DNA from: Pseudonocardia thermophila
GTDB lineage: Bacteria > Actinomycetota > Actinomycetes > Mycobacteriales > Pseudonocardiaceae
Direction: 5' to 3'
NCBI RefSeq assembly: GCF_900142365.1
Contig: NZ_FRAP01000001.1
Span: forward strand, 124,001-188,000
Length of the DNA: 64,000 nucleotides
The position numbers and the translations under genes were made by a program. Of this stretch, positions 22,699 to 62,950 are shown in pieces (position 1 is the stretch's first letter; every line of letters begins with the position of its first letter). Under the pieces are notes generated by a model that worked only from the letters and a program-made list of their open reading frames with translations, was not told where the DNA came from and did not search any database.

Positions 22699-22750
22699 CC
22701 ACGAACGGCACTTCCGTCAGCACCGGTGCTGACGGAAGTGCCGTTCGTGG
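22699..22750. repeat. 52-bp palindromic element, copy 1
   Basis: This is a perfect palindrome of two 26-bp arms with no loop. The outer arms are CCACGAACGGCACTTCCGT and ACGGAAGTGCCGTTCGTGG, and the centre is CAGCACCGGTGCTG. It lies 50 bp beyond the metK stop, before priA. It could terminate metK transcription, but it shares sequence, not only structure, with copies at 37053, 60418 and 62899, and has no U-tract. Confidence 0.95.
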
Positions 22751-22800
22751 AGCGTCAGCGGGATCCAGCCCGGCCCACCGCGTCGCCCACGGGCGCGGGC

Positions 22801-24018
22801 TCAGGCGCCCACGATGGAGCGCAGGGCGTCCGCGCGGTCGGTGCGCTCCCACGGCAGGTCGAGGTCGGTGCGGCCGAAGTGGCCGTACGCCGCCGTGGGC
22901 TGGTAGATGGGCCGCAGCAGGTCGAGGTCGCGGATGATCGCGGCCGGGCGGAGGTCGAAGACCTCGGTGATCGCGGCCTGGATCTTCGCGGGGTCCACCT
23001 GCTCGGTGCCGAAGGTCTCCACGAACAGGCCGACGGGCGCGGCCTTACCGATGGCGTAGGCGATCTGCACCTCCAGGCGCTCGGCGAGGCCGGCGGCCAC
23101 CGCGTTCTTCGCGACCCAGCGCATCGCGTACGCGGCGGAGCGGTCGACCTTCGACGGGTCCTTGCCGGAGAACGCGCCGCCGCCGTGGCGGGCGAAGCCG
23201 CCGTAGGTGTCGACGATGATCTTGCGGCCGGTCAGGCCCGCGTCGCCCATCGGGCCGCCGAGGACGAAGCGGCCGGTGGGGTTCACCAGGAGCCGGACGT
23301 CGGAGGTCTCGAGCTCGAGATCGGCGATCTCCGGCGTGACGACGTGCTCGAGGATGTCGGGGGCGAGCATGCCGTCGATGTCGATGTCGGCGGCGTGCTG
23401 GGTGGAGACGACGACGGTGTCGAGCCGGACGGCCTTGTCACCCGCGTACTCGATGGTGACCTGGGTCTTGCCGTCGGGCCGCAGGTAGGGCAGCACGCCT
23501 TCCTTGCGGACGGAGGCGAGGCGACGGGCGAGGCGGTGGGCGAGCGCGATCGGCAGCGGCATGAGCTCGGGGGTGTCGGTGTTCGCGTAGCCGAACATCA
23601 GCCCCTGGTCGCCGGCGCCCTGGCGGGCGATCTCGTCCTCGGACATCTCGACCCGGCTCTCGTAGGCCTGGTCGACGCCCTGCGCGATGTCGGGCGACTG
23701 CGCGCCGATGGCGACGTTCACGCCGCAGGAGGCCCCGTCGAAGCCCTTCGCGGACGAGTCGTAGCCGATGCCGAGCACGGTGTCGCGCACGATCTGCGGG
23801 ATGTCCGCGTACGCGGACGTGGTGACCTCGCCCGCGACGTGCACCTGCCCGGTGGTGATCAGGGTCTCGACGGCGACCCGGCTCCTCGGGTCCTGCGCCA
23901 GCAGGGCGTCGAGGATCCCGTCGCTGATCGCGTCGCACATCTTGTCGGGGTGACCCTCGGTCACCGACTCGCTCGTGAACAGCCGTCGTCCTGCGCTCGT
24001 CACCAGAGATTCCGCCAT
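22801..24018 (-). CDS. metK: S-adenosylmethionine synthetase
   Basis: MetK makes SAM from Met and ATP. The 405-residue protein has [17 protein letters not shown] (metal and ATP site), [48 protein letters not shown] and DLPWERTD near the end. The frame is open to 24054; ATG 24018 (MAESLVTS) suits the family. It is alone between two intergenic regions and is divergent from an SH3-domain gene. Confidence 0.96.
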
Positions 24019-24201
24019 TCTGCGTCTGCAGTCCTGCCCGTCCGGCTCCTGCACGGCGGGCGTACATCGGTCGGGCGTGAGCGTAGTCGACCGCGCGGGG
24101 TCAACTCGTTACGCGGCACAGCGGCCGGGCTCGACTCACGTTCCGTGTTCGTATCTGCGACACGCCGCACTGTTCGTCCCCGATCGGTGGAAATCACATC
24201 G

Positions 24202-24219
24202 GGTAGCGAATCGGTAACG
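24202..24219 (+). promoter_or_regulatory. Direct repeat GGTAGCG/GGTAACG upstream of SH3 gene
   Basis: GGTAGCG at 24202-24208 and GGTAACG at 24213-24219 are spaced 11 bp centre to centre, one helical turn. They lie 22-39 bp before the ATG of the SH3-domain gene. Such in-phase repeats suit a response-regulator dimer. The regulator is not identified. Confidence 0.3.
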
Positions 24220-24240
24220 GGTCGTTTCGTTGGACCGGGC

Positions 24241-24789
24241 ATGGACGCCCCTCTGCGAGGAACCGTCACATTCCTGCGGCGCCGTGCCCGGACGATCGCG
24301 GTGGTCGGCGCCGTCGTGGCCGTCGGGGCCGCGACCCTCATGACCGTCGCCGTCGCCGAGGCCGCCGAGCCCGGCCGGTGCGTCGGCAACGTCAACGTGC
24401 GCGCCGAGCCGGACCAGGACGCCCCCGTCCTGACCGTGTGCCGCCGCGGCACCCCCGTCACGGTCGGCGAGATCCGCAACGGCTTCGTGGAGCTCACCTC
24501 GCTCCACGGCTGGGCGGCCCAGGAGTACGTCGAGATCAACGGCCACACGCCACGGCCACCGGTCGAGCGGATCCCTGCCGCGGACGAGGAGCCCGAGGCG
24601 CGACCGGCGCCCCGCACCGCCCGTTCGGCGGCCACCCGAGCGGCCGGACCCACGACCCCGGCGACCACACCGCCGACCCCCGAGCAGGAACCCGCCGAGG
24701 AGCCCGAGGCCGCCCCGGAACCCGCACCCGTCACCACCGGCGCCCAGCCCCTGCTCACGCCGCCGCGCCTGCGGCTGTCGGGCGGCTGA
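24241..24789 (+). CDS. Membrane-anchored SH3-domain protein
   Basis: The 182-residue protein begins with a basic stretch and one hydrophobic segment (about residues 18-40, TIAVVGAVVAVGAATLM) that is either a signal peptide ending AEAAE or an anchor. A bacterial SH3 domain follows (NVNVRAEPDQDAPVLTVCRR, then WAAQEYVEI; about 45-100), with two Cys residues that could pair. The last 80 residues are Pro/Ala/Glu-rich and likely wall-spanning or disordered. The role is probably cell-envelope binding; no catalytic domain is present. It is divergent from metK. Confidence 0.75.
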   Translation: MDAPLRGTVTFLRRRARTIAVVGAVVAVGAATLMTVAVAEAAEPGRCVGNVNVRAEPDQDAPVLTVCRRGTPVTVGEIRNGFVELTSLHGWAAQEYVEINGHTPRPPVERIPAADEEPEARPAPRTARSAATRAAGPTTPATTPPTPEQEPAEEPEAAPEPAPVTTGAQPLLTPPRLRLSGG

Positions 24790-24832
24790 TCCACCACAGC
24801 CGTCCACCACAGCCCTCCACCACAGCGCTCCA
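24790..24832. repeat. Tandem 13-bp direct repeats (3.3 copies)
   Basis: TCCACCACAGCCG, TCCACCACAGCCC and TCCACCACAGCGC follow each other without gaps from 24790, then TCCA. They fill the 51-bp space between the convergent stops of the SH3 gene and coaBC. There is no dyad symmetry, so this is not a hairpin terminator. Confidence 0.8.
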
Positions 24833-24840
24833 GGGTTGCG

Positions 24841-26070
24841 CTACCGGTCCCGCAGCCGGGCCGCGACCGCGTCCCACACCCGCGAGGCGAGCAGCGCCTT
24901 CGAGCCGTGCGGCAGCACGGTCTCGGAGCCGTCGGCGGCCAGCAGCCACCCGGCGTTCTCCGGCACCTCGAACGCCATGCCGTCCCCGACGGCGTTGACG
25001 ACCAGCAGGTCGCAGCCCTTGCGGGCGAGCTTCTGCCGGCCGTGGTGCAGCGCGTCGCCCGTGTCGTCGCCGGTCTCGGCCGCGAACCCGACCACGATCT
25101 GGCCCGGTTCCCGCGCACCGACCAGCTCGACGAGGATGTCCGGGTTCGTGGTGAGCGCCAGCGGTTCGGGGTCAGAACCCGTCTTCTTGATCTTGTGCCC
25201 GGCCAGCGAGACCGGCCGGAAGTCGGCCACCGCGGCGGCCATCACGACCGCGTCCGCGCCCTTCACCGCCGCGTGCATCGCATCGCGCAGCTCCAGAGCG
25301 GACCCGACCCGCACCACCTCGACGGCGGCCGGATCGGCCAGGTCGGCGGTGTGCGCGGCGACCAGCGTGACCGCGGCGCCGCGCTGCGCGGCCACGGCGG
25401 CCAGCGCGTAGCCCTGCCGCCCGGACGAGCGGTTGCCCAGGAACCGGACGGGATCGAGCGGCTCCCGCGTGCCGCCCGCCGACACCACGACCCGCCGCCC
25501 GGCGAGGTCCTGGGGCAGGCCGTCGGGGCGCTCGAGGAGCAGCCGGCCCAGCTCGACGATCTGCTCCGGCTCGGGCAGCCGGCCCGGTCCGGTGTCGGCG
25601 CCGGTGAGCCGTCCGGAGGCCGGCTCCATGACGACGGCGCCGCGCGAGCGCAGCAGGGCCACGTTGGCCCGGGTGGCCGGGTGCTCCCACATCTCGGTGT
25701 GCATCGCCGGCGCGAACAGCACCGGGCACCGGGCGGTGAGCAGCGTGGCGGTCAGCAGGTCGTCGGCGCGGCCCTGCGCGGCGCGGGCCAAGAGGTCCGC
25801 GGTGGCGGGCGCGACGACGACGAGGTCCGCCTCCTTGCCCAGGCGCACGTGCGGCACCTGGTGCACGTCGGCGAACACGCCGGTGTGCACCGGCTGCCCG
25901 GACAGCGCCTCGAAGGTGGCGGCGCCGACGAACTCCAGTGCCGACGGGGTCGGCACCACCCGCACGCGGTGCCCGCTCTCGGTGAACCTGCGCAGCACCT
26001 CGGCGCTCTTGTAGGCGGCGATGCCGCCCGCCACCCCGAGGACCACCCGGGGGCCGTCGACCGCGTTCAT
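24841..26070 (-). CDS. coaBC: Bifunctional CoaBC (Dfp) of coenzyme A synthesis
   Basis: CoaBC joins cysteine to phosphopantothenate and decarboxylates the product. The 409-residue protein has the N-terminal flavin decarboxylase domain CoaC (LGVAGGIAAYKSAEVLRRF, PATADLLARAAQG, APAMHTEMWEHPA with its catalytic-site Met/His context; about 1-185) and the C-terminal CTP-dependent synthetase CoaB (VVSAGGTREPLDPVRFLGNR, AAVADFRP, KIKKTG, LVVGFAAET-like segment). It lies 28 bp after rpoZ, a conserved order. Confidence 0.95.
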   Translation of the reverse strand: MNAVDGPRVVLGVAGGIAAYKSAEVLRRFTESGHRVRVVPTPSALEFVGAATFEALSGQPVHTGVFADVHQVPHVRLGKEADLVVVAPATADLLARAAQGRADDLLTATLLTARCPVLFAPAMHTEMWEHPATRANVALLRSRGAVVMEPASGRLTGADTGPGRLPEPEQIVELGRLLLERPDGLPQDLAGRRVVVSAGGTREPLDPVRFLGNRSSGRQGYALAAVAAQRGAAVTLVAAHTADLADPAAVEVVRVGSALELRDAMHAAVKGADAVVMAAAVADFRPVSLAGHKIKKTGSDPEPLALTTNPDILVELVGAREPGQIVVGFAAETGDDTGDALHHGRQKLARKGCDLLVVNAVGDGMAFEVPENAGWLLAADGSETVLPHGSKALLASRVWDAVAARLRDR

Positions 26071-26098
26071 GACGCCTCTCGCGTCTGCGCGCGACCGA

Positions 26099-26380
26099 TC
26101 AGTGCTCGCCCTCGACGTGCTCCAGCAGCCCGGCCTGGATCTCGCGCATCGCGATCGAGAGCGGCTTCTCGCGCGGCCCCGGCTCGACGAGCGGGCCGAC
26201 GTACTCGAGCAGACCCTCGCCGAGCTGGGAGTAGTAGTCGTTGATCTGCCGGGCGCGCTTGGCCGCGTAGATCACCAGGGCGTACTTCGAGCTCACCCGG
26301 CTGAGCAGGTCGTCGATGGGCGGGTTGGTGATGCCCTCCGGCTGGGCATCGGCGGTGGGGGCGATCAGCGGCATGCTCAA
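26099..26380 (-). CDS. rpoZ: RNA polymerase omega subunit
   Basis: Omega assists folding and assembly of the beta' subunit. The 93-residue protein has the signature [20 protein letters not shown] and [20 protein letters not shown], and ends [23 protein letters not shown] 26380 has AGGAG 9 bp upstream; an ATG two codons later (26374) is the alternative. It lies between gmk and coaBC in the conserved gmk-rpoZ-coaBC-metK order. Confidence 0.95.
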
Positions 26381-26419
26381 CGCAGCAAACTCCTAGCGGG
26401 GTACGGCCGGCGGGATCTT

Positions 26420-27130
26420 TCAGCCGACCAGCAATTCTATCAATCGGCGGACGACCTTCTGCACGTCGTCGTTGACCAGCTGGACGTCGAACTCGTCCGC
26501 TGCAGCGAGCTCCTCCTTCGCCGTGGCGAGGCGGCGCTCGAACTGCTCCGGCGACTCCGTCCCCCGGTCGCGCAGCCGCCGCACCAGCTCGTCCCACGAC
26601 GGCGGGGCCAGGAAGACGGTCGTCGCCTCCGGCATCGCCTTCTTCACCGCGCGGGCGCCCTGGAGATCGACCTCCACGAGGACCGGGTCACCCCTGCGCA
26701 GTGCCTCCTCCACCGGTGCCCGCAACGTGCCGGAGCGCTGCAGACCACCGTGGATCTCCGCCCACTCCAGCAGCTCGTTGCGGGCGATCAGCTCGTCGAA
26801 CCCGGCCGGACCGACGAAGCGGTAGTGGACCCCGTCGATCTCGCCGGGTCGCGGGTCGCGGGTGGTCGCCGACACGGAGAAGTACAACTCCGGCAGCGCC
26901 GCCCGCAGCGCCGTCACGACGCTGGACTTGCCGACGCCGGAGGGGCCGGCCAGAACGAGCAGCCGGCCCCTCCGGGGCTCGTGCGACCGCGGTTGCGACG
27001 TCATCTCGGACAGTGTCTCCGACGATGCCGCCCCGGGCAGTGCCGCGGTGGGCACCGCCGTGGCGGGCATCGACGTCGACAGCGTCTCGGACGCCTGGGA
27101 GATCGACGCCTGGGGGATCGGCTCGGACAT
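26420..27130 (-). CDS. gmk: Guanylate kinase with N-terminal extension
   Basis: Gmk phosphorylates GMP to GDP. The core has Walker [34 protein letters not shown] (GMP binding) and [16 protein letters not shown]. The core would begin at ATG 27004 (MTSQPRS; 194 residues, the usual length). Codons with GC-rich third positions continue upstream through ATG 27130 to a GTG at 27157 that overlaps the mihF stop as GTGA. I take 27130, giving a 42-residue Ser/Ala/Thr-rich extension. The true start is uncertain. Confidence 0.92.
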
Positions 27131-27153
27131 CGACCCGTACCGCGGTGAGCCGA

Positions 27154-27483
27154 TCACCCCTCGAAGTCGGCGAGCAGAGCCTTGCGCTGCCGGTCACCCA
27201 GGCCGCGCAGCCGACGCGACGGCGCGATCTCCAGCCGCTCCATGATCTGGGCGGCCCGGACCTTGCCGACGCCCGGCAACGACTCGAGCAGCGCCGAGAC
27301 CTTCATCTTGCCCAAGACGTCGTCCGTGTCGGCGAGCTTGAGCACCTCCGGCAAGGTGGTGGCGCCCGTCTTGAGCTTGTTCTTCAGCTCGGCCCGGGCA
27401 CGGCGCGCCGCAGCGGCCTTCTGCAAGGCCTCGGCGCGCTGTTCCTCGGTCAGCTGGGGAAGGGCCACGGTCTCCTCCGTCAT
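27154..27483 (-). CDS. mihF: Actinobacterial integration host factor
   Basis: MihF/sIHF is the nucleoid-associated DNA-binding protein of actinobacteria, unrelated to HU-type IHF. The 109-residue protein has a long N-terminal helix ([20 protein letters not shown]) and the helix-two-turn-helix core [20 protein letters not shown] and [20 protein letters not shown], ending [18 protein letters not shown]. It precedes gmk, as in mycobacteria, and follows a 495-bp non-coding stretch that should hold its promoter. Confidence 0.95.
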
Positions 27484-27978
27484 TCGTTCGTGCGGGCTCC
27501 GGCACGTTCCGAAGCCGCTTACACACCGGCCGCCGGTGCGCTGGTCCGTCTCTCCGGAGCAGAGCCCGAGCGGTACGGGATCCGAACGTACTCATCGCGT
27601 GCGGGAACCCGGAACCGGGGTGCCACCTGTGGGTTTGCGGTTTCGCTCACCCGTCACGGTGATAGCACGAGACACCGGTCGGTATCGACACCGACGCGCC
27701 CCGTTCACCGCAACTCCGGGACCGTGCACCTGTTTACCCGATCCCGCGCGCACGGCACGTCGACCGCTCGACCGGACGCCGAGCGGTGCACCCGTCCGGG
27801 CGCCTGACAACCGGGTGATCACGGTCGGTGACCCTCCGTCACTCCGACGCCGCGGACCGCCCAGCGGCAGGGCCGACGCGCCGAACGGCGGGTCCGATTC
27901 CGGTCCCTGACCAGGCGCGATACCGGACGGAATCCGCTGTGTGGTGTTCGCGACATCACCCCGGCGCAACCGGGTCCG
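27484..27978. other. 495-bp intergenic region upstream of mihF
   Basis: No credible gene was found on either strand between the mihF start and the pyrF stop; base composition by codon position is not coding-like. A short inverted repeat GTCGGT/ACCGAC lies at 27678-27695. The region presumably carries the mihF promoter and leader, but I could not place promoter elements. Confidence 0.5.

Positions 27979-28799: not shown

Positions 28800-28803
<4 letters not shown>
27979..28803 (-). CDS. pyrF: Orotidine 5'-phosphate decarboxylase (type 2)
   Basis: PyrF makes UMP from OMP. The 274-residue protein has the actinobacterial type-2 motifs [38 protein letters not shown] (catalytic Lys/Asp) and [12 protein letters not shown], with [10 protein letters not shown] near the phosphate site. 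Its GTG start overlaps the carB stop as GTGA. It is the last gene of the pyr operon. Confidence 0.95.
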
Positions 28804-32098
<3,295 letters not shown>

Positions 32099-37052: not shown

Positions 37053-37104
37053 CCACGAACGGCACTTTCGTCAGCACCACTGCTGACGAGAGTGCCGTTC
37101 GTGG
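37053..37104. repeat. 52-bp palindromic element, copy 2
   Basis: The arms CCACGAACGGCACTTTCGT and ACGAGAGTGCCGTTCGTGG flank CAGCACCACTGCTG. Compared with copy 1 it has one wobble in the arms and two unpaired central positions, with identical length and ends. It lies between the convergent bldD and fusion-oxidase genes, but bldD already has its own hairpin, so termination alone does not explain it. Confidence 0.95.
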
Positions 37105-37136: not shown

Positions 37137-39404
37137 TCACGCCGGGACGCCCGCGGAGACCCCGGTGTCCGCCCCGCGCTCGGCCGGGTCGATGAAGAAG
37201 TTGTCGCGGAACAGTCCCGTCGGGTCGTAGCGGTGCTTGAGCTCCCGCAGCCGAGCCAGGTGCGCGGGCGGGAACGCCCTGGCCACGACCTCGGGCCCAC
37301 GAGAGGTCTCGAAGCTCAGGTAGAGCCCCTCCATGTGCGGCAGGAGCAGCGTGTCCCACCGCTCGTCGAGGCCCGAGTTCCGCGTCCCGAACGCACCGAT
37401 GGTGAAGTTCGCCCGCCGCCAGCCCCAGGCGGTCGCGTCGGCCGGGACGTCGGCGACCTTCCCGCCGAGTGCGCGGATCGCGAAGAAGTACGAGGCCCGC
37501 GCGTCGAGGATCTCGGCAACCCCCTTCGCGAACTCCGGGGTGAGGTGCTCGACCATCCCGGAACGCGAGTGCGGCTCGCCGAAGCCGTGCTGCTCGTCGT
37601 CGGTGACCGCGAACCCGATCACCTCGTCGTAGGTCGTCAGCACGACCGACTGCTGCATGAGCGGCGCGATGTCCGCGAACGGCTGCAGCAGCTCGACGAT
37701 CGTGTCCGGGTCGTCGCTCTCCACGACCAGGATCGCCTGCGCGAACCGGCGACCGCCCTGGCCGGGTCCGAGGATGATCTCGCCGGTGACGCGCCGGTCG
37801 GCGGCCTCCAGCGTCGCGCCCCAGCGCTGCACGAACCCGGCGGTGTCGGTGGCGTCGAAGACGAGCTGGGCGAAGCCGACCTTGCCGACGTGCGCGGCCT
37901 CGAACTCGAACGACACGGCCACGCCGAAGTTCGCGCCAGCGCCGCGGACGGCCCAGAACAGATCGGGGTTCTCCTCGGCCGAAGCGTGCGCGAGCGTGCC
38001 GTCGGCGAGCACGACGTCGACGGAGCGGAGGTGGTCGATCGTCAGTCCGTGGGAGCGGGCGAGCAGTCCGACGCCGCCCGCGGTGGCCAGGCCGCCCACG
38101 CCGACGCCGCCGTGGTCGCCGCTCGTGATCGCCAGGCCGTGCGGGGTCAGTTCGCGTGCCACGTCGAGCCAGCGGGCACCGGGGCCGATCCGCACCCGGC
38201 CCGACTCGGCGTCGAGCACCTCGACGGCGTTGAGGGCGCCGACGTCGATGACGATCCCGCCGTTGTTGAGGGACCGGCCGGAGATGCCGTGGCCGGCGCT
38301 GAAGATGCCGAGCGGCACGTCGCGGTTGCGCGCGGCGAACCGCACGGCGTCCTGCACCTCGGCCACGGTGCGCGGCCGCAGGACCAGCGCCGGAGCCCCG
38401 CCGCGCAGGTAGCCGGCGGTGTAGCGGGCGTACCCGGGGTCGCCGGGTTCGAGGGCCCGGTCGGCGAGCGAGTCGGGGATGCCGGCGTAGTCGATGCCGG
38501 GCACCCGGGAGGAGCGGGCCTTGACCCGCGCCGGGCGCACAGTGGCGGTGCCGCGGCGGGCCCGGCCGCGCTCGACGGCCTCCCGCACGGCGGGTGCGAC
38601 GTCGCGGCCGAAGCGCTCCAGCAGCCTCGGGTCGTCGCCGGCGAGGATGAACGTGCTGATCCCCTCGTCGAGGGCCAGCGAGACGATGTCCTCGACCGAC
38701 TCCTGCGGGGTGATGTTGAGCAGCCGCTCGATCTCGCGGGGATCGCGGCCCGCGGCCTTCGCCGCGGCGTCGATGATCGCGTTGCCGCGGGTGATGTCGC
38801 CGGGCTTCAGGTACGGCATCGACGGCAGCCAGCCGTCGGCGACCGTGCCGGTCAGCTCGAGCATCCGCTTCTTGTAGGCGCCGACCCAGATCGGGATGGG
38901 GTGCGCGGGGGCCGGGCCGCGCTTCGCTCCGTCGACGCGGTGGTGCACGCCGCCGGCGCGCAGGAGACCGGTGTCGTCGGTGTTCCAGATGCCGCGCATG
39001 ACCTCGATGGCCTCGCGCAGGGCGTCGACGGACTCGGCGGGCGTCAGGCGCTTGCCGCCCATCGCCGCGATCGCGTCCCAGAACCCGCCCGCGCCGATGC
39101 CGAGCCGCACCCGGCCGCCGGTGAGCAGGTCGAGGCTGGCGGCGGCGCGGGCGAGCACCGCGGGCTGGCGCAGGGGCAGGTTGAGGACGTTGCCGGCGAG
39201 CGCGATCCGCTCGGTGCGGGCCGCGACCCAGGCCAGCAGGGTCCAGGTGTCGTGGAACTGGGGCTGGTAGGGGTGGTCCTGGAACGTGACCAGGTCCAGG
39301 CCGTGCTCTTCGCTCAGCAGGGCCAGATCGGCTGGACGGGACACGGGGCGGTTCCGCGGCGTGATGAAGGAACCGAAACGCAGTGGGTGGCCGTAGTCGG
39401 GCAT
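37137..39404 (-). CDS. Luciferase-like monooxygenase fused to FAD-linked oxidase
   Basis: This 755-residue protein joins two flavoenzymes. Residues 1-285 are a luciferase-like (F420/FMN) domain: [40 protein letters not shown] and [14 protein letters not shown]. Residues 325-745 are a berberine-bridge/VAO-type oxidase: [33 protein letters not shown] (His for covalent FAD), [21 protein letters not shown] and a C-terminal [15 protein letters not shown]. The usual second flavin-linking Cys is absent. The frame is continuous with no internal stop. The substrate is unknown. It is divergent from an HxlR regulator 64 bp away. Confidence 0.85.
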
Positions 39405-53706: not shown

Positions 53707-53709
53707 GGC

Positions 53710-54598: not shown

Positions 54599-54625
54599 GC
54601 GCGCACGCCGTCACGGCGTGCGCGC
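54599..54625 (-). promoter_or_regulatory. 12-bp perfect hairpin between pup and prcB
   Basis: GCGCGCACGCCG at 54599-54610 and CGGCGTGCGCGC at 54614-54625 form a perfect stem with a 3-nt loop. In the minus-strand message it falls 34 nt after the pup stop and 28 nt before prcB. It may be a partial terminator or RNA processing block that leaves more pup than prcBA message. Confidence 0.6.
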
Positions 54626-54659
54626 ACCAGGTCGTGATCTCGTCGTGCAGGAGAGGAAG

Positions 54660-54857: not shown

Positions 54858-55000
54858 GTGAAGTACCTCCTCCTCCCGGACACCTGTCGCCGCACGTGCC
54901 CGTTGAGGAAACAGTAACCCAGCACGCCGACGACACGCCCGTGATCGGGACGCGGTGCACCCCTCGTCCGCGGTGTTCGCAGCCGGCCAACCGGCGCCGC

Positions 55001-56545
55001 TCAGCCCTGCGTCAGGGCGGTCACGAGCTCCTCGGCGGTGCGCGCGTTGTCGATCAGCTCGCCCACGTGCCGCCGGGTGCCGCGCAGCGGTTCGAGGGTG
55101 GGGATGCGCACCAGCGACTCGCGGCCGAGGTCGAAGATGACCGAGTCCCACGAGGCCGCAGCGACCTCACCGGGGTACCGCTCGAGGCAGCGACCGCGGA
55201 AGTAGGCGCGGGTGTTCTCCGGCGGGTTGTGCATGGCCGCGCGGATGTCCTCCTCGCTGACCAGCCGCTTGATCGACCCGCGGGTGGCCAGGCGGTTGTA
55301 GAGCCCCTTCGCCATCCGCACGTCGCTGTACTGCAGGTCCACCAGCGCCAGCCGCCCGGACTCCCAGCTGAGCCCGTCGCGCTCCCGGTAGCCCTCGAGC
55401 AGCCGCAGCTTGGCCGTCCAGTCGAGCCGGTCGGCGGTCTCCATCGGGTCGCGCTCGAGCGCGTCGAGGACCTCGCCCCACAGCTGCAGCACCTCGGCCG
55501 TGTCCGGGTCGACGTCGGCGCCCAGGGTGTTCTCGACGTGCTTCTGCGCCTTCTCGAAGTACGCCCGCTGCACGTCCAGGCCGGTGAACTTGCGCCCGTC
55601 CACCAGGTCGACGGTGGTCTTGAGCGTGGGATCGTGGCTGATCCGGTGCACCGAGCGCACCGGCTCGGCCAGGCGCAGCTCGTCGAACCGGACGCCGTTC
55701 TCGATCATGTCCAGCACCAGCGCCGTGGTGCCGACCTTCAGCAGTGTGGAGTACTCGCTCAGGTTCGCGTCGCCGATGATCACGTGCAGACGGCGGTACT
55801 TGTCGGCGTCGGCGTGCGGCTCGTCGCGGGTGTTGATGATGCCGCGCTTGAGCGTGGTCTCCAGGCCGACCTCGACCTCGATGTAGTCGGCCCGCTGGGA
55901 CAGCTGGTAGCCGGGCTCCTCGCCCGTCGTGCCGATCCCGACCCGCCCGGAGCCGGTGATCACCTGCCGGGTCACGAAGAACGGCGTGAGCCCCGCCACG
56001 ATCGCCGGGAACGGGGTGAACCGGGACATCAGGTAGTTCTCGTGCGAGCCGTAGCTCGCGCCCTTGCCGTCGACGTTGTTCTTGTAGAGCTGGATCCGCG
56101 GGGCGCCGGGGACGGTGGCCGCCCGCAGCGCGGCCTCCTCCATCGTCCGCTCCCCCGCCTTGTCCCAGATCACGACGTCGCGCGGGGTGAGGACCTCGGG
56201 GGTCGAGTACTCCGGGTGCGCGTGGTCGACGTAGAGCCGGGCACCGTTGGTGAGGATGACGTTCGCGGCACCCAGGTCGTCGAGGTCGGAGTCGCCGGGC
56301 GAGTGCATCGTCGGCGCGGACAGGTCGAACCCGCGCGCGTCGCGCAGCGGGGACTCCACCTCGTAGTCCCACCGGGCCCGCCGGGACCGCGGGATGTCGG
56401 CCGCCGCGGCGTACGCCAGGACGATCTGGGTCGAGGTGATCACCGGGTTCGCGGCGGGGTCACCGGGCACCGAGATCCCGTACTCGACCTCGGTGCCCAT
56501 GATCCGGCGAGCACCGGACAGGGGCTTCGTCGACGGCTGTGTCAC
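55001..56545 (-). CDS. dop: Depupylase / Pup deamidase Dop
   Basis: Dop removes Pup from proteins and, where Pup ends in Gln, deamidates it. The 514-residue protein is a PafA homologue: [37 protein letters not shown] (catalytic Asp), [19 protein letters not shown] and the Dop-specific loop near [14 protein letters not shown] that PafA lacks. Since Pup here already ends in Glu, depupylation is its expected job. It precedes pup. Confidence 0.95.
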
Positions 56546-56599
56546 GCGCGCACCTCACACGAGCTCATCCGCCGAGCCTAACCGGCGGAAGATGGGACC

Positions 56600-57121
56600 G
56601 TGCAGGATCCTGGCGCCGAACTCGTGGCGCTCTACGACCCCGAGGGTGCCCCGACCGGCGAAGCGGCGCAACGCAGCGTCGTCTACCGCGACGGACTCTG
56701 GCACGCCGCCACGGCCGTGCTCCTGCGCAGCACCGACGGACGGCGGGTCTACCTGCACCGGCGGACGGACACCAAACTGGTCCACCCGGGTGCGTACGAC
56801 TGCTGGGCAGGCGGGGTGGTCGACCCGGGCGAGACGCCCGGTGCGGCCGCGGAGCGGGAGCTGGCCGAAGAACTCGGGGTGACGGGCGTCCCGCTCGCGC
56901 CGCTCGACCGGTTCCGCTACGACGACGGCCGGCTGCGCTACCACGTGTTCGCCTACGAGGCGTTCTGGGACGGCCCGGTCACCTGGCAGCCCGAGGAGGT
57001 GGCCTGGGGCGGCTGGGTCACCGTGGCGGAGCTGCGTGCGGTGCTCGCCGACCCGGCTCGCCCGTTCGCCCCGGACGGGCGGGTGGGTGCGCAGCGCTGG
57101 CTGGCCCGGCTGGGGACCTGA
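56600..57121 (+). CDS. NUDIX hydrolase
   Basis: The 173-residue protein has a NUDIX box GGVVDPGETPGAAAERELAE followed by ELGV, matching GX5EX7REUXEEXGU. RDGLWHAATAVLLRSTDGRR, YLHRRTDTKLVHPGAYDCWA and FAYEAFWDGPV resemble the YfcD/IPP-isomerase-like subgroup, but the substrate is not predictable. GTG 56600 starts 54 bp from divergent dop. The plus-strand orientation breaks the dop-mpa run. Confidence 0.88.
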   Translation: MQDPGAELVALYDPEGAPTGEAAQRSVVYRDGLWHAATAVLLRSTDGRRVYLHRRTDTKLVHPGAYDCWAGGVVDPGETPGAAAERELAEELGVTGVPLAPLDRFRYDDGRLRYHVFAYEAFWDGPVTWQPEEVAWGGWVTVAELRAVLADPARPFAPDGRVGAQRWLARLGT

Positions 57122-57150
57122 GGCGGGGTCCGAGGGGATCAGGACGGGGA

Positions 57151-57471
57151 TCAGCCGAACCACCGCACGGTCATGCCGGGCAGGCCGTCCGGGTACCGAT
57201 CACGGACCTCGCACCACTCCTGCACGTTCGCCCGCACGATGAGCGCAGCCGCGGTCAGGGGCTCGCCGCCGAGCCCCGCGAGCATCCCCGGGAAGGTGAG
57301 CCGCCACCTCGCCTCCCGGCCTTCGGCCTCGGCGAGCTCGACGACGAGCCCGGTCCCGGTGCGGTCGGCCACCACGCCGGTCGCCTCCGGCAGCCGCTCC
57401 CGGACCGCGGCGGCGAGCTCGTCGACGGTCCACGGCGCATCCGGTGCCGAACCAGCGACGGGCCGGCGCAC
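57151..57471 (-). CDS. Uncharacterised protein downstream of lpdA
   Basis: The 106-residue product (WTVDELAAAVRERLPEATGV, LVVELAEAEGREARWRLTFP, NVQEWCEVRDRYPDGLPGMT) looks like a small soluble alpha-beta protein. I do not recognise a family. It starts at GTG 57471, three bases after the lpdA stop, so the two are coupled, and it converges on the NUDIX gene. Confidence 0.6.
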   Translation of the reverse strand: MRRPVAGSAPDAPWTVDELAAAVRERLPEATGVVADRTGTGLVVELAEAEGREARWRLTFPGMLAGLGGEPLTAAALIVRANVQEWCEVRDRYPDGLPGMTVRWFG

Positions 57472-57474
57472 GGC

Positions 57475-58890
57475 TCAGAGGTTGATCATGTGCCCGGCGA
57501 GCCCGTGGATGGCCTCCTGGAGCCCCTCGGACAGCGTCGGGTGCGCGTGGACGTTGCGGGCCAGCTCGTGGGCGGTGAGGTCCCACTTCTGCGCCAGCGT
57601 GAGCTCCGGCAGCAGCTCGGTGACCTCGGGGCCGATGAGGTGACCGCCGAGCAGCTCGCCGTGCGTGTCGTCGCTGATGAGCTTGACGAACCCGCCCGGC
57701 TCGGCGATGCCCTGCGCCTTGCCGTTCGCGGTGAAGGGGAACTTCGCGACCTTCACCTTCCACCCGCGCTCCGCGGCCAGCTCGTTCGCCTGGGCCTCGG
57801 TGTAGCCGAAGCTCGCCACCTGCGGTGTGCAGAACGTCGCCCGCGGCATCATCACGTAGTCCTCGGGCCCGAGCGGCATCGTCTCGGCGCCGGCGATCGT
57901 CTCGGCCGCGACCACGCCCTGGGCCTCGGCGACGTGGGCGAGCATCAGCTTCGCGGTGACGTCGCCGATCGCGTACACGTGCTCGACGTTGGTGCGCATG
58001 TGGTCGTCGACCGCGATCGCGCCCCGCTCGGTCAGCGCGACGCCCAGCCTCTCCAGGCCGTAGCCCTCGGTGCGCGGGGCGAACCCGATCGCGGAGAGCA
58101 GCTTGTCGGCGGTGAGCGTCTTCTCCTGGCCGTTCTGGGTGACCGTGACGGTCACACCGTCACCGGACTCGTCGACCGCTTCGACCTTCGTGGAGGTCAG
58201 CACGTCGATGCCGTACTTCTTGTAGCGGCGGGCCAGCTCCTTGGAGACCTCGGCGTCCTCCAGCGGCAGGAGCCGGTCGAGGAACTCGACGATCGTGACC
58301 TTGACGCCGAAGTTGCGCAGCACGAACGCGAACTCGACACCGATCGCGCCGGCCCCCGCGATGACGATGCTCTTCGGGAGATCGCGGCTGAGGATCTGCT
58401 CCTCGTAGGTGACGACCTTCTCCGAGCGCTCCACCCCGGGCATCATCCGGGTGGTGGTGCCGGTGGCGATGATGACGTCGTCGTAGGTGACGGTCTCGGT
58501 GCCGCCGGAGTTGAGCGCGACCTCGATCACACCGGGCTCGACGAACGTGCCCCGCCCGTCGAACTCGGTGATCTTGTTCTTCTTCATCAGGTAGTGCACG
58601 CCCTTGACGCGGCCCTCGGCCACGGCCCGGCTGCGGTCGAAGGCGGCCCCGAAGTCGAACGAGACGTCGCCGGAGACCCCGAAGGTCTTCGCCTCGTCGG
58701 TCATCAGGTGCGCGAGCTCGGCGTTGCGCAGCAGCGCCTTCGACGGGATGCACCCGACGTTCAGGCACACGCCGCCCCAGTACTTCTCCTCCACCACGGC
58801 GACGCTCTTGCCGAGCTGAGCCGCGCGGATCGCCGCGACGTACCCACCGGGACCTGCACCGAGAACGACCACGTCGAAGTGCGATGACAT
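57475..58890 (-). CDS. lpdA: Dihydrolipoyl dehydrogenase
   Basis: LpdA is the E3 flavoprotein of 2-oxo acid dehydrogenase complexes and, in mycobacteria, of the AhpC/AhpD/DlaT peroxidase system. The 471-residue protein has [20 protein letters not shown] (FAD), redox motif [13 protein letters not shown] (about 42-54), [20 protein letters not shown] (NAD), [15 protein letters not shown] and the C-terminal base [16 protein letters not shown] 58890 (MSSHF) is preferred to 58899. Confidence 0.95.
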
Positions 58891-59065
58891 GGTCGCCACC
58901 CTAGTAGGCGACTCCCGTCGGCGGTGCGCCCGTCGTGCATCCGTGATCTTGCGCCATCGGTGTGATGACCACCACCGCGGGAATTATGTGAACGCTCAAC
59001 TTGTAATTATTGGTGTCCGCTCAACAACTGAGCTTTCACGTACCCCCACGGAGGACCGAAGCAGC

Positions 59066-59608
59066 ATGACGACCGCGACCCGCATCCCCGGTTACATCGC
59101 CGGCACCTGGGACATCGACCCCGTCCACTCCACGGTCGGCTTCGCCGTCCGGCACATGATGGTCAGCAAGGTCCGCGGCCGTTTCACCACGTTCTCGGGC
59201 GAGATCGTCACCGGTGAGAACCTGGAGGACTCGAAGGTCACCGCCACCGTCGACGCCGCTTCGATCGACACGGCGAACGAGCAGCGCGACGAGCACATCC
59301 GCTCCGCCGACTTCTTCGCGGTCGAGAAGTACCCGACCTGGACCTTCCGCTCCACCTCGGTCAGCGAGGACAAGCTGGAGGGCGAGCTGACCATCAAGGG
59401 CGTGACCAAGCCGGTCACCTTCGACCTGGAGTTCACCGGCTTCGGGCCGGACGCCTACGGCGGCACCCGCGCCGGGTTCGAGGCCACCACCACCATCAAC
59501 CGCAACGACTTCGGCGTCGACATCCAGATGCCGCTCGACGGTGGCGGCGTGGTGATCGGCGACAAGGTCACCATCACCCTCGAGATCGAGGCCGTGCTGC
59601 GCAAGTGA
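59066..59608 (+). CDS. YceI family lipid-binding protein
   Basis: YceI proteins are lipocalin-like barrels that bind polyisoprenoids. The 180-residue protein has WDIDPVHSTVGFAVRHMMVS, FTTFSGEIVTGENLEDSKVT, DEHIRSADFFAVEKYPTWTF and LTIKGVTKPVTFDLEFTGFG. It has no signal peptide, so it is cytoplasmic, as in most actinobacterial members. ATG 59066 has GGAGGA 11 bp upstream. It is divergent from lpdA with 175 bp between. Confidence 0.92.
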   Translation: MTTATRIPGYIAGTWDIDPVHSTVGFAVRHMMVSKVRGRFTTFSGEIVTGENLEDSKVTATVDAASIDTANEQRDEHIRSADFFAVEKYPTWTFRSTSVSEDKLEGELTIKGVTKPVTFDLEFTGFGPDAYGGTRAGFEATTTINRNDFGVDIQMPLDGGGVVIGDKVTITLEIEAVLRK

Positions 59609-59649
59609 GTCGCACGTGAGGTGAGAGCCGGCCACTCGCGAGCCGGCGA

Positions 59650-60200
59650 GCACCTATCACGAGGTCGGGCCCTTACCGGGAACGACGCCGCCGACGGCAC
59701 TGCGGGAGGCGATCGCGGCCGTCTGGACGCTCGACGCACCTCGCGGCGCGTGCTCCCGGACGGGTGCACGGACCTGGTCTGGAGCAGCGGCGAGCTCCTC
59801 GTCGCCGGCCCGGACACCGCACCTGACCGGCGGTCGCGCTCCGGCGCGGCCGCCGGTGTGCGTTTCCAGCCGGGTGCGCTCCCGTCGCTCGTGGCGTGCC
59901 CGGCGCGGCGCTGCGCGACCAGCGCGTCCCGCTCGCCGAGCTGCTCCCCGATCTCGCCGGCGCCGCGACCGCCCGCATCGAGCGCGGCGACGATCCCACC
60001 GCGGTGCTGCTCGACCTCGCCCCGCGGCTGCCCGGCGATCCCGCCCTGCCGTGCGGCGCGCGTCGCGCGGTGCGGTGGCCGGGCGATCAGCCGCGGAGCT
60101 GGCCGACGCGCTCGGCTGGCTACGCCGGCCAGCCGCACCTCTCCCAGGAGGTCCGCACCCTCGTCGGGACCAGCCCGGCTCAGCTGAGCGGGCCGAACAG
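59650..60200 (+). pseudogene. Decayed AraC-family regulator
   Basis: Pieces of one AraC-type regulator appear in order but in three frames. Frame 0 has YHEVGPLPGTTPPTALREAI and AAVWTLDAPRG from 59655. The next frame has RVLPDGCTDLVWSSGELLVA and VRFQPGALPSLV. The third has VPLAELLPDLAGAATARIER and DLAPRLPGDPA. Frame 0 returns with AAELADALGW, then GYAGQPHLSQEVRTLVGTSP. The middle of the helix-turn-helix is missing and no start codon remains. At least three frameshifts and a deletion make it nonfunctional. Confidence 0.8.
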
Positions 60201-60345
60201 GTCGACGCCCGTGCCGTCGGGCGCCGGGCAGGGTCACCTCCACGTGCCCGTCCGCCTCAGGGGGCAGTCCAGGGCCGAGCAGGCGGTAGAAGGCCGGTGC
60301 TCTCGCCATGTCGGAGACGATGATGCCGGTGTGGTCGAAGCGTCC
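60180..60345 (-). pseudogene. Decayed VOC (glyoxalase-like) gene
   Basis: The minus strand encodes FDHTGIIVSDMARAPAFYRL, then PPEADGHVEVTLPGA, the start of a vicinal-oxygen-chelate protein. A frame change then leads into DGTGVDLFGPLS and a TGA at 60180-60182, the usual end of such proteins. About 60-70 central residues are missing and there is no start codon. It overlaps the tail of the decayed AraC gene, with which VOC genes are often paired. Confidence 0.72.
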
Positions 60346-60417
60346 GTGCGTCGTGCGCCGCGACGCTAGGGGCTCCCGGCGGCCCCTGTCGTGAACGGAT
60401 CGGACAGCCCCGAAGAG

Positions 60418-60469
60418 CCGCGAACGGCCCTTCCGTGAGCGGTGCTGCTCACGGAAGGGCCGTTCGTGG
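60418..60469. repeat. 52-bp palindromic element, copy 3
   Basis: The arms CCGCGAACGGCCCTTCCGT and ACGGAAGGGCCGTTCGTGG flank GAGCGGTGCTGCTC. It differs from copies 1 and 2 by compensated changes (CAC/GTG to CCC/GGG in the arms). It lies 30 bp beyond the ahpF stop and next to the AraC/VOC remnants. Confidence 0.95.
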
Positions 60470-60498
60470 AGATCGCGCGGGCCCGCCGCGGTGCCTGA

Positions 60499-62073
60499 TC
60501 AGACCGGCGCCGTCGTGCGGATCAGGTGGTCGAAGGCGCTCAGCGCGGCCTTCGCCCCCTCACCGGCAGCGGTGACGATCTGCTTGTACGGCACGGTCGT
60601 GCAGTCACCCGCCGCGAACACCCCCGGGACGTTCGTCCGGCCGGCGGCGTCCACCACGACCTCGCCCCGGTCGGTGAGCTCGATGGTGTCGGCCAGCCAG
60701 TCCGTGTTCGGCACCAACCCGATCTGCACGAAGACGCCCGCCACGTCCAGGACGTGCTCCTCGCCGCTCGTGCGGTCCCGGTAGCGCAGCCCGGTGACCC
60801 GGCGACCGTCGCCGATCACCTCGGTGGTCTGCGCCTCCAGCACGACCGTCACGTTCGGCAGGCTGCGCAGCTTGCGCTGCAGCACCTCGTCGGCGCGCAG
60901 CTCCCCGAGGAACTCCAGGAGCGTGACCCGGGAGGTGATGCCGGCCAGGTCGATGGCCGCCTCCACCCCCGAGTTGCCGCCTCCGACGACCGCCACGGGC
61001 TTGCCCTTGAACAGCGGGCCATCGCAGTGCGGGCAGTAGGTCACGCCCTTGTTGCGGTACTCCTGTTCGCCGGGGACCCCGAGGTTGCGCCACCGGGCGC
61101 CGGTCGCGAGCACGATCGTCCGGGCGCGCAGCTGCGCACCGTTCTCGAACTCGACGACCAGCGGCTCGCCTTCCTCGACCGGCGCGACGAGCTTGACCGC
61201 CTTCTGCCGGTCGATGACGTCGACCTCGTACTCCCGCACGTGCCGCTCCAGAGCCGCCCCGTACTGGACGCCCTCGGTGTGCAGCACGGTCGGGTAGTTC
61301 TCGATCCCGGCGGTGTCGAGGACCTGGCCGCCCAGCCGCTCGGCGACCAGCCCGGTGCGGATCCCCTTGCGGGCCGCGTAGATCGCCGCCGTCGCACCGG
61401 CCGGGCCGCCCCCGACGACGAGCACGTCGTAGGTCTCGCGGCCGGACATCTCCTGCGCCTGCCGCTCCTCGGCGCCGGAGTCGAGCTTGGCGACGATGTC
61501 GGCCAGGCCCATCCGGCCCTGGGCGAACAGCTCACCGTTGAGGTAGACGGTCGGGACGCTCAGGATCTCCCGCGCCTTGACCTCGTCCGCGAACGCACCG
61601 CCCTCGATCGCCGTGTGGGTCACGTTCGGGTTCAGCGCGCTCATGATGTTGAGCGCCTGGACCACGTCGGGGCAGTTCTGGCAGGTGAGCGAGAAGTAGG
61701 TCTCGAAGTGCAGCGGACCCGGCAGCGCCTTGACCTGCTCGAGCAGCTCAGCCTCCTCCTTGGGCGGGTGACCGCCCACGTGGAGCAGCGCCAGCACCAG
61801 GGAGGTGAACTCGTGCCCGAGCGGGACACCTGCGAAGCGGACGCCGGTGTCCACGCCGGGATTGGTGATCAGGAACGACGGGCGGCGCACGTCGTCGAGG
61901 TCGCGCTCGACGACGGTCACCTTGTCGCTGACCGACGCGATGTCGGCCAGCAGCTCCCGTGTCTGCTGACTGACCCTGTCGGAGTCATCGCCCAGGGTCG
62001 CCACCAGCTCGATAGGCTTGCGGAGCAGCCCAAGATGCTCCTTGAGCTGCGCCTTCAGGCGCTCGTCCAGCAT
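60499..62073 (-). CDS. ahpF: Alkyl hydroperoxide reductase subunit F
   Basis: AhpF passes electrons from NAD(P)H to AhpC. The 524-residue protein has an N-terminal double thioredoxin-like domain with the redox centre [13 protein letters not shown] (usual form CHNC), then a thioredoxin-reductase-like part: [20 protein letters not shown] (FAD), [20 protein letters not shown] (redox CXXC plus NAD loop) and [19 protein letters not shown] 62073 follows the ahpC stop by one base. Confidence 0.95.
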
Positions 62074-62074
62074 G

Positions 62075-62638
62075 TCAGATCTTGCCGACCAGCTCCAGGG
62101 ACGGGGACAGGGTCTCGGCGCCCTCCTCCCACTTCGCCGGGCAGACCTCACCGGGGTGGGCGGCGATGTACTGCGCGGCCTTGACCCGGCGCAGCAGCTC
62201 GGCGGCGCTGCGGCCGATGCCGTTGTCGTTGACCTCGGCGGCCTTGATCACGCCGTCGGGGTCGATGACGAACGTGCCGCGCAGGGCCTGGCCCGCGTCC
62301 TCGATCAGCACGTCGAAGGCGCGCGAGAGCTCGAAGGTCATGTCGGCGAGCATCGGGTACTTCACCTTGCCGACGGCCGGCGAGCTGTCGTGCCACGCCT
62401 TGTGCGAGAAGTGGCTGTCGGTGGAGACGGCGTACACCTCGACGCCGAGCTTCTGGAACTCCTCGTAGTTGTCGGCGAGGTCCTCGAGCTCCGTGGGGCA
62501 GACGAAGGTGAAGTCACCCGGGTAGAAGACCAGCACGCTCCACTTGCCCTTGAGGTCGGCGTCGGTGACCTCGATGAACTTCCCGTCGTGGAAAGCGTTC
62601 ACCTTGAACGGCTGGATGGTGCTGTTGATCAGAGGCAT
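62075..62638 (-). CDS. ahpC: Alkyl hydroperoxide reductase subunit C (peroxiredoxin)
   Basis: AhpC reduces peroxides. The 187-residue 2-Cys peroxiredoxin has [18 protein letters not shown] (peroxidatic Cys), [31 protein letters not shown] and [13 protein letters not shown] (resolving Cys). ATG 62638 has AGGAG 5 bp upstream. It forms an operon with ahpF. No oxyR gene is adjacent, but the upstream region carries operator-like repeats. Confidence 0.96.
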
Positions 62639-62687
62639 CGTCACTCCTACTCGTGCGACCGCCGCGGAACCAGGGGAGCACCGCGGG

Positions 62688-62712
62688 CTTGTCTTGAATG
62701 ATTCCAGACAAG
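62688..62712 (-). promoter_or_regulatory. ahpC: Inverted repeat upstream of ahpC, Fur-family-like operator
   Basis: CTTGTCT at 62688-62694 and AGACAAG at 62706-62712 are perfect arms. Inside, TTGAATGATTCCA resembles the 6-1-6 form TTGAAT-N-ATTCAA of peroxide-sensing Fur-family boxes with one mismatch. It lies 50-74 bp before the ahpC start. Confidence 0.5.
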
Positions 62713-62725
62713 GCGGTGAGATGCC

Positions 62726-62768
62726 GAATCTGCGGACCATGGCCTGCGTCACGCATGAATCTGCGGAC
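62726..62768. repeat. GAATCTGCGGAC direct repeat upstream of ahpC
   Basis: GAATCTGCGGAC occurs at 62726-62737 and 62757-62768, 31 bp apart (about three helical turns), upstream of the ahpC inverted repeat. In-phase spacing suits a regulator binding two sites. Confidence 0.6.
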
Positions 62769-62898
62769 AAAGACCTTGATCAACGGATGTTGAGGATATC
62801 CACGCTGATCAACCACGGGTCCGCCGGGCGGTCCGCCGCGGATCGGCCCTCTCCGCGTCAGCAGGCCTGTGACCAGCACCTCACCCGGACCGGGAAAG

Positions 62899-62950
62899 CC
62901 ACGAACGGCCCTTTCGTGCGCAATGCTGCTACGAAAGGGCCGTTCGTCGG
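62899..62950. repeat. 52-bp palindromic element, copy 4
   Basis: The arms CCACGAACGGCCCTTTCGT and ACGAAAGGGCCGTTCGTCGG flank GCGCAATGCTGCT. One extra C near the right end breaks the final base pairs. It lies in the long gap between ahpC and mpa, about 85 bp beyond the decayed GNAT gene. Confidence 0.9.

What the first reader, a model, noticed from the sequence alone, without database searches (positions are those of the whole stretch)
22699..62950. Family of four 52-bp intergenic palindromes with conserved sequence
Copies at 22699-22750, 37053-37104, 60418-60469 and 62899-62950 share length, outer arms (CCRCGAACGGCMCTTYCGT with its complement) and a central TGCTG. Arm differences are mostly compensated (CAC/GTG versus CCC/GGG), which points to selection on pairing. 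All are intergenic. Ordinary terminators in this window share no sequence, so a common identity suggests a mobile palindrome (REP/MITE-like), a protein-binding site, or a dedicated RNA signal. I see no target-site duplications.
Basis: seen in the sequence. Interest (0 to 1): 0.72.

Follow-up and report, generated by a model that had tools for sequence, protein, structure and literature searches.

The report
REP-like palindrome family in Pseudonocardia
The four palindromes belong to a family of DNA hairpins scattered through Pseudonocardia genomes, mostly just behind genes but sometimes inside them, which looks like a mobile element that the cell may partly use to mark gene ends.

Summary
The four 52-bp palindromes are real. 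They belong to a genome-wide family, here called F1. The own genome (6.1 Mb) holds 141+136 arm matches against 5+5 for a reversed control. I read 66 complete copies. Arms are near-invariant (ACGAACGGCMCTTYCGT), their starts 30 or 31 bp apart; variable stem positions co-vary. Of 62 intergenic copies, 29 lie in convergent, 29 in tandem and 4 in divergent gaps (random placement 9.6/31.7/20.6), a median 31 nt from a stop codon. No T-tract follows.

F1 occurs in 21 of 35 congeners searched and in a few other genera of the family, with a species-specific centre. Two of 66 copies lie in frame inside genes (SMC, AtuA). At those sites some relatives carry other palindromes and others none.

Best reading: a REP-like mobile palindrome without the usual RAYT transposase or GTAG/CGTC tag, retained mainly at gene ends, where it probably acts as a two-way 3'-end hairpin. 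The mobilizer is unknown and termination is untested. Separately, an IS110-family element interrupts F1 in two species and carries a guide-like word matching its own target.

The parts
22699..22750 (.). F1 palindrome, copy 1 (offset-31 subfamily); 50 nt downstream of the metK stop codon, tandem gap
37053..37104 (.). F1 palindrome, copy 2 (offset-31 subfamily); convergent gap, arms 63 and 34 nt from the two stop codons
60418..60469 (.). F1 palindrome, copy 3 (offset-31 subfamily); arms 31 nt downstream of the stop of the minus-strand gene 60499-62073; scored convergent, the plus-strand neighbour being 811 nt away
62899..62950 (.). F1 palindrome, copy 4 (offset 30, weaker hairpin); tandem gap of 689 nt, arms 262 and 380 nt from the flanking called genes
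22801..24018 (-). 405-aa protein, metK (S-adenosylmethionine synthetase; name recalled from the protein sequence, not scanned against a library), whose 3' end carries copy 1
37137..39404 (-). 755-aa protein whose stop codon faces copy 2
60499..62073 (-). 524-aa protein whose stop codon faces copy 3

Best explanation
F1 is a non-autonomous, REP-like interspersed palindrome of Pseudonocardia. Shown: it is dispersed, with tens to hundreds of copies in some species; it keeps 17-bp arms and a 30/31-bp arm spacing; its centre is similar within a species and different between species; in the own genome it sits mostly within about 60 nt after stop codons, often between convergent genes; and in two cases it sits in frame inside coding genes, at sites where some relatives have no palindrome and others have a palindrome of another sequence. 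Inferred: it spreads by copying, with a mobilizer that is not a RAYT and remains unidentified; copies that hit promoters or most coding sequence are lost; copies that land behind genes persist because the long hairpin, formed in the transcript of either strand, ends or protects transcripts from both sides although no U-tract follows.
For: Genome-wide count 141+136 against control 5+5. 66 copies in 861 kb: 29 convergent, 29 tandem, 4 divergent, 3 called genic, 1 at a stretch edge; 4 unpaired arms at up to 2 mismatches. Random placement gives 9.6/31.7/20.6 (5000 runs: at most 20 convergent, at least 9 divergent); median distance to the nearest stop 31 nt against a simulated mean of 112 (minimum 40); 22 of 29 tandem copies nearer the upstream stop (simulated mean 50%, maximum 83%). 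Covariation across the long hairpin. 13-nt centre distance, offset-30 copies of four species: within 0.9-2.5, between 3.7-7.9. Paired pattern in 21 of 35 congeners and 0 of 24 genomes of other genera of the order, up to 213 copies; named hits all Pseudonocardia; the arm is abundant in a few other genera of the family. SMC and AtuA copies with the lowest coding score at the copy; 5 of 10 SMC orthologues and 3 of 7 AtuA orthologues examined carry a non-F1 palindrome there, while hairpins of score 15 or more number only 4 in 2.11 Mb of coding sequence, two of them F1. P. kunmingensis copies carry shared asymmetric flanks. Convergent gaps with F1 less often hold another hairpin (3 of 28 against 13 of 35, p 0.02).
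Against: No mobilizing enzyme found. No target-site duplication beyond shuffles. No U-tract: 1.67 T per 10 nt after the hairpin against 1.42 expected and 1.05 before it, 5 of 87 ends with 4 or more. No preference for G-U over A-C mismatches on the transcribed strand of tandem copies (10 against 16), so nothing specific to RNA-level selection. In P. kunmingensis 8 of 32 placed copies are in divergent gaps (about 11 expected from gap length), where a terminator role makes no sense. The other-hairpin test is not significant when tandem gaps are included (5 of 56 against 38 of 217, p 0.15). Sharing of F1 by orthologous gene ends is weak: 2 of 5 against 4 of 48 pairs, p 0.09. No empty site with base-exact borders was obtained. 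The paired pattern was not found in 14 of 35 congeners.
Confidence: 0.6

Rival explanations
1. Neutral or selfish REP-like element: the same mobile palindrome, but without a function at gene ends. Its position only reflects where insertions do little harm.
For: Copies inside genes in frame; divergent copies in P. kunmingensis; no U-tract; no G-U preference; other recurrent palindromes show similar placement.
Against: Clustering within 60 nt after stops (46 of 58) and on the stop side of tandem gaps (22 of 29); fewer other hairpins in convergent gaps that hold F1; pairing kept by compensatory change, although a palindrome-correcting mutation process could also do that.
Confidence: 0.28
2. Binding site of a dedicated factor (for example a dimeric DNA-binding protein, or gyrase as reported for REPs): conserved arms are read as double-stranded DNA, and the element acts as a roadblock or topological insulator between convergent genes.
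For: Most arm positions are invariant or nearly so; each 17-bp arm is itself a rough palindrome (ACGAA...TTCGT, read by eye); arm-start spacing is 30 or 31 bp in all 66 copies, near three helical turns; convergent bias. REPs bind gyrase according to a passage of PMC1525189.
Against: Arm changes are compensated across the long hairpin (13/41, 16/38); single arms are rare (4 against 66 pairs); the same gene-end or loop position holds other palindromes in relatives; fixed spacing can come from common descent.
Confidence: 0.1
3. Ordinary intrinsic terminators that merely share composition and arose independently, not a family.
For: Gene-end position and strong hairpin.
Against: Over a hundred arm hits on each strand against five for the control, in-gene copies, species-specific centres.
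Confidence: 0.01
4. DNA-uptake-like signal (DUS dialects), which also pair up at terminators and shift sequence between species.
For: Species-specific sequence variants at gene ends resemble DUS dialects (abstract of PMC3630211; a passage of PMC2267715 on DUS pairs as possible terminators).
Against: DUS occur in thousands of copies per genome (same abstract); here about 140 by arm count, almost always paired.
Confidence: 0.01

Closest known systems
REP sequences with RAYT (GTAG-tagged REPs; PMC3733652 and PMC1525189, abstract and passages read)
   Same: Short high-copy palindromes, mostly between convergent and tandem ORFs and downstream of genes, some inside genes, several types in some genomes, used as targets by IS110-family elements.
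   Different: No GTAG at the ends (1 of 132 sides); no Y1/RAYT gene in the own genome, in the F1-richest relative G004, or in G011 and G013; a 47-53 bp palindrome, longer than the 20-40 bp given in PMC3733652 though within the 21-65 given in PMC1525189.
CGTC-tagged REPs and Rickettsia palindromic elements (PMC3733652, abstract and passages read)
   Same: No dedicated transposase known; in-frame copies inside genes; the paper reports different REPs at about the same site of recB in two Xanthomonas species, comparable to SMC here.
   Different: No CGTC tag (0 of 132 sides); different sequence; an actinomycete host. A term search of that paper for Actinobacteria and Streptomyces gave no occurrence.
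Stem-loop sequence (SLS) families (PMC2267715, passages read; PMC1590033, search listing only)
   Same: Repeated sequence families defined by a shared stem-loop.
   Different: The passage seen lists only Corynebacterium and Mycobacterium under high-GC Gram-positives.
U-poor ('I-shaped') intrinsic terminators of GC-rich actinomycetes (PMC8914203, PMC12207403, passages read)
   Same: Long stable hairpins behind genes with little U after them.
   Different: Those are defined by structure; F1 is a sequence family. Streptomyces terminators have 3-4 U in 10 nt (PMC12207403), F1 1.67.

Membership tests
REP (GTAG, RAYT-mobilized) | high-copy short palindrome, mostly extragenic | tested here: met
REP (GTAG, RAYT-mobilized) | unpaired GTAG at one end | tested here: not met
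   1 of 132 flanks within 8 nt
REP (GTAG, RAYT-mobilized) | RAYT (Y1 transposase) in the genome | tested here: not met
   PF01797: no match in G000, G004, G011, G013; 7 of 37 genomes have one; 5 of 14 control genomes ring. G000 is a draft, 98.83% complete
CGTC REP / RPE | CGTC tag at one end | tested here: not met
   0 of 132 flanks within 8 nt
CGTC REP / RPE | in-frame copies inside genes | tested here: met
   2 of 66 copies, SMC and AtuA
MITE | target-site duplication | tested here: not met
   66 copies: flank repeats of 3-9 bp within the range of 300 shuffles; one copy has a 9-bp match, equal to the shuffled maximum
MITE | autonomous parent transposon with the same ends | not tested
   No search for a parent was made beyond PF01797
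intrinsic terminator | stable hairpin shortly after the stop codon | tested here: met
intrinsic terminator | U-tract | tested here: not met
   1.67 T in 10 nt, 5 of 87 with 4 or more
intrinsic terminator | transcripts end there | not testable with these tools
   No RNA data
SLS family | sequence family sharing a stem-loop | tested here: met
DNA uptake sequence | thousands of copies per genome, not confined to inverted pairs | tested here: not met
   About 140 copies by arm count, 4 single arms against 66 pairs
Rfam families | match to a curated RNA family at gathering score | tested here: not met
   No match in the window or in 7 loci

The most novel reading that the evidence does not exclude
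Pseudonocardia chromosomes have persistent 'palindrome sites' (gene ends and tolerant loops inside genes such as the SMC hinge) whose occupant is exchanged between species: whichever palindrome family is active in a lineage (F1 or the CAGGAANGCCAC family S2) replaces or re-fills the same site. This would need a copying or conversion process acting on palindromes that does not use RAYTs, and would explain both the species-specific 'dialects' and the lack of target duplications.
Probability: 0.2. Interest if true: 0.85.

Novelty: new variant of a known kind. Interest (0 to 1): 0.6.

Why it matters
Tagged REP elements reside predominantly in Proteobacteria, and RAYTs are the proposed mobilizers of the GTAG type (PMC3733652, abstract). 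A large palindrome family in an actinomycete genus, with no RAYT in the own genome, and with other palindromes at the same site of the SMC gene in relatives, makes the open question of how such palindromes multiply directly testable. The IS110-family elements found in F1, as IS621 in E. coli REPs (PMC1525189 and PMC11208160, passages), suggest that conserved extragenic palindromes may be general landing sites for bridge-RNA elements.

Tried and rejected
RAYT/Y1 transposase as mobilizer: rejected for this genome. Rfam family: none. Phage carriage: exact paired pattern, 0 hits in viral contigs. DUS: rejected on copy number and pairing. Inner palindrome of each arm as a dimer site: covariation follows the long hairpin instead. 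RNA-level wobble signal: not seen. Target-site duplication: not above shuffles. Shared F1 at orthologous gene ends: suggestive only, p 0.09. F1 selected to be open in all frames: no signal, 26 of 66 copies open in six frames against 32% of random window 53-mers. The first metK table picked wrong ORFs in several loci and was replaced. A terminator scan of window 56001-64000 found one U-tract site against 1.9 in shuffles and none at F1. Sequence-string paper searches gave no paper; searches joining palindrome terms with Pseudonocardiaceae, Amycolatopsis or Actinobacteria gave nothing relevant, judged by listings. These searches cover only the held open-licence library.

Ascertainment: the 40 own stretches were chosen around exact arm hits listed (contigs C1-C22 only, the list being capped), so F1 density and the share of gaps with F1 are inflated; the comparison between gap classes is not. 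Copies were accepted with up to 4 mismatches per arm and 6 in all. SMC orthologues: 10 stretches taken of 33 other genomes with a match. AtuA: 7 loci of 30 others. metK: the 30 best loci, the own one included, of 61 genomes with a match; two of them (G025, G264) look like near-identical genomes. Rows dropped: the 3 called-genic and 1 edge copy before the gap-class and distance tests; offset-31 copies before the centre-distance test. L139 7547-7593 was called genic, but the coding score turns negative there, so it is probably a gene-end copy. The L102 and L050 cases come from loci fetched because they hold F1.
Full report
Observation. The four palindromes are present as described and fold as hairpins of -38 to -50.4 kcal/mol. 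The window lies in a 6.1-Mb genome of 47 contigs (G000:C14:124001-188000).

Copy number and anatomy. The arm pattern with up to two mismatches gives 141 forward and 136 reverse matches in the own genome against 5 and 5 for the reversed control. In 41 own stretches (861 kb, 40 of them chosen around hits, plus the window) I found 66 complete copies; the arm-start offset is 30 bp in 45 and 31 bp in 21; 4 arms were unpaired. The offset-30 group has mostly the centre CCACTC-N-GAGTGG and outer ends GCA/TGC; the offset-31 group, to which three of the four window copies belong, has a more varied centre such as GAGCACC..GGTGCTC. Most arm positions are invariant or nearly so. Those that vary are compensated across the long hairpin: pair 3/51 shows all four Watson-Crick types, 13/41 is paired in 44 of 45 copies against 22.9 expected, 16/38 in 41 of 45 against 31.5. 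The rough palindrome inside each arm is not compensated, which speaks for the full hairpin. A mutation process that corrects imperfect palindromes could produce the same pattern.

Position. Random placement in the same gaps gives 9.6, 31.7 and 20.6, and in 5000 simulations never more than 20 convergent or fewer than 9 divergent. The nearest stop codon is a median 31 nt away (simulated mean 112, minimum 40); 46 of 58 are within 60 nt; 22 of 29 tandem copies are nearer the upstream stop than the downstream start (simulated mean 50%, maximum 83%). In convergent gaps other hairpins are rarer where F1 is present (3 of 28 against 13 of 35, p 0.02), but over all stop-bounded gaps the difference is not significant (5 of 56 against 38 of 217, p 0.15). 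T residues in the 10 nt after the hairpin average 1.67, against 1.42 expected and 1.05 before it, and G-U mismatches on the transcribed strand are not preferred over A-C (10 against 16). So the position says 'gene end', but the sequence lacks the marks of a canonical terminator.

Relatives. The paired pattern occurs in 22 of 60 genomes searched, the own one included; the other 21 are all congeners (21 of 35), and none of the 24 genomes from other genera of the order has it: 213 in G004, 50 in G011, 22 in G013, 76 in the own genome for this spacing. The single arm is also abundant in one genome of genus g35 (116+96) and in several of g64 (up to 45+42). In all, 124 of 249 family genomes have at least one single-arm match, but many of these have only one or a few, close to the control columns. 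The 13-nt centre of offset-30 copies is similar within a species (mean distance 0.9-2.5, four species) and differs between species (3.7-7.9). In P. kunmingensis many copies share asymmetric flanks beyond the palindrome, about GGCTCCCACCCGG before and CATGCGAATCCCG after (24 rows aligned; 26 of 41 copies by the test). The right-hand flank word occurs 36+29 times in that genome with 0 control, 7 and 2 times in G011 and G030, and not in the own genome. There 8 of 32 placed copies are in divergent gaps.

Orthologous sites. Behind metK, 18 of 29 relatives' loci have a hairpin (score 9 or more) starting within 60 nt of the stop; in four it is of a GTGAGYGG type and in four, two of them from near-identical genomes, of a CGAACGGC type. 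For gene ends in general the sharing of F1 between species is weak (2 of 5 against 4 of 48 pairs, p 0.09). Two shared cases have F1 at the same gene end with a different, species-typical centre (L107/L102, L116/L050); the relatives' loci had been fetched because they hold F1.

Copies inside genes. Two of 66 copies lie inside SMC (L132 9111-9157, within the hinge domain match) and AtuA (L145 9128-9174, between the AtuA and ferredoxin-like domain matches); the coding score along the gene is lowest at the copy. Both are read in the same frame (NERPFRP..VDERAVR). At the SMC site, G004, G022, G033, G015 and G005 carry a palindrome of the CAGGAANGCCAC type (here S2), while G008, G032, G013, G009 and G017 have none of score 10 or more in the stretch taken. 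At the AtuA site G026 and G013 carry GTGCGCG-type palindromes (scores 22 and 17) and G031 a GGCCGCCGGGTCCC palindrome (14), while G015, G025, G032 and G255 have none of score 9 or more. Hairpins of score 15 or more are otherwise almost absent from coding sequence: 4 in 2.11 Mb over eight genome samples, two of them these F1 copies. S2 is a family in its own right: 449+448 matches in G314, 91+84 in G015, 16+18 in G004, 0+1 in the own genome. For F1 and S2 the occupant of the site is thus a family that the genome also carries elsewhere; for the GTGCGCG type this was not tested genome-wide.

Mechanism. Dispersal, lineage-specific centres, extended copies and in-frame intragenic copies are what a mobile palindrome gives (inference). 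The mobilizer is not a RAYT in this genome: PF01797 has no match in G000, G004, G011 or G013. No target duplication is visible. Gene-end retention with pairing kept fits a two-way 3'-end hairpin (inference, untested).

IS110 elements. One own copy (L108 from 10117) and one P. kunmingensis copy (L264 from 9497) are interrupted at the same place in the right arm..AGTGCC|TCAGTGT. The P. kunmingensis transposase matches PF01548 and PF02371; the broken own one was scanned in one piece and matches PF02371. GTTCGT, the rest of the arm, follows at the other end in both (read by eye). The left end folds into a long interrupted hairpin (no shuffle control). It carries a 10-nt word shared with the left target, GAAAGTGCCT in the own genome and GAGAGTGCCT in P. 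kunmingensis, the last base belonging to the element. A related left end in G026 (its transposase was not scanned) lies next to a non-F1 target and carries ACAAGTGCCT, matching its own target; no left end carries another's 9-nt word. The junction pattern with up to one mismatch occurs in 7 of 62 genomes, once in each; only G000, G004 and G026 are exact, and the reversed control has hits in three genomes. The covariation is what a bridge-RNA target guide would give (PMC11208160, passages), and IS621 likewise inserts into E. coli REPs (PMC1525189 and PMC11208160, passages).

Known work. REPs are small palindromes found mostly between convergent and tandem ORFs, downstream of genes and sometimes inside genes; different REPs at about the same site of recB in two Xanthomonas species are reported (PMC3733652, passages). 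F1 shares these habits but has no GTAG or CGTC tag (1 and 0 of 132 flanks) and the genome no RAYT match. I therefore call it REP-like, a new variant, not a member. No paper in the searched library turned up under the sequences or terms I tried.

Noticed in passing
L108:10117-11500 (own genome C2), L264:9497-12190 (P. kunmingensis), L330 (G026): IS110-family elements; two sit in the right arm of F1, and all three left ends carry a 10-nt word that matches their own target and not the others' (bridge-RNA-like guide). The P. kunmingensis copy is itself interrupted by an IS3-like element; the own copy is broken.
   Followed up: partly
L112, L117, L118, L120, L122, L123 and others (own genome): A second own hairpin group, typified by CGTCGAGAACGAA..TGGTGATCA...TGATCACCA..TTCGTTCTCGACG: 9 members in the 861-kb sample by k-mer clustering, 5 of them convergent.
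   Followed up: partly
genus-wide; L058-L092 (Pseudonocardia sp. TRM90224): Family S2 (CAGGAANGCCACNTTC palindromes, arm offset 33 in 10 of 10 copies), 449+448 arm matches in G314 and nearly absent from the own genome.
   Followed up: partly
L248, L249, L264 (P. kunmingensis): A third palindrome family, CGCACCTTGGAGCCTTACTGCTG, 3 clustered copies in 400 kb, all between convergent genes.
   Followed up: no
L093, L105, L106, L257 and others (P. kunmingensis): F1 copies embedded in an asymmetric element of about 78 bp; three copies (L086, L105, L106) share still longer flanks containing GGAAACGGGACATG.
   Followed up: partly
window 63262-63300: An 18-bp perfect inverted repeat (GGCGAACCGCCCGGTGCT) 27 nt from the stop of the next gene, not of the F1 family.
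   Followed up: no
L114:9334-9395 (own genome): An F1 left arm whose right half is replaced by another palindrome (GAGCTGCCTTCGTGAGCAGCTGCTCACGAAGGCAGCTC), perhaps a rearranged copy.
   Followed up: no
L322:11127 (G049, another family of the order): A long hairpin GGTGATCAAGAGGTTTGGGTCA... between convergent genes, which may point to similar conserved hairpins outside the family; not searched further.
   Followed up: no
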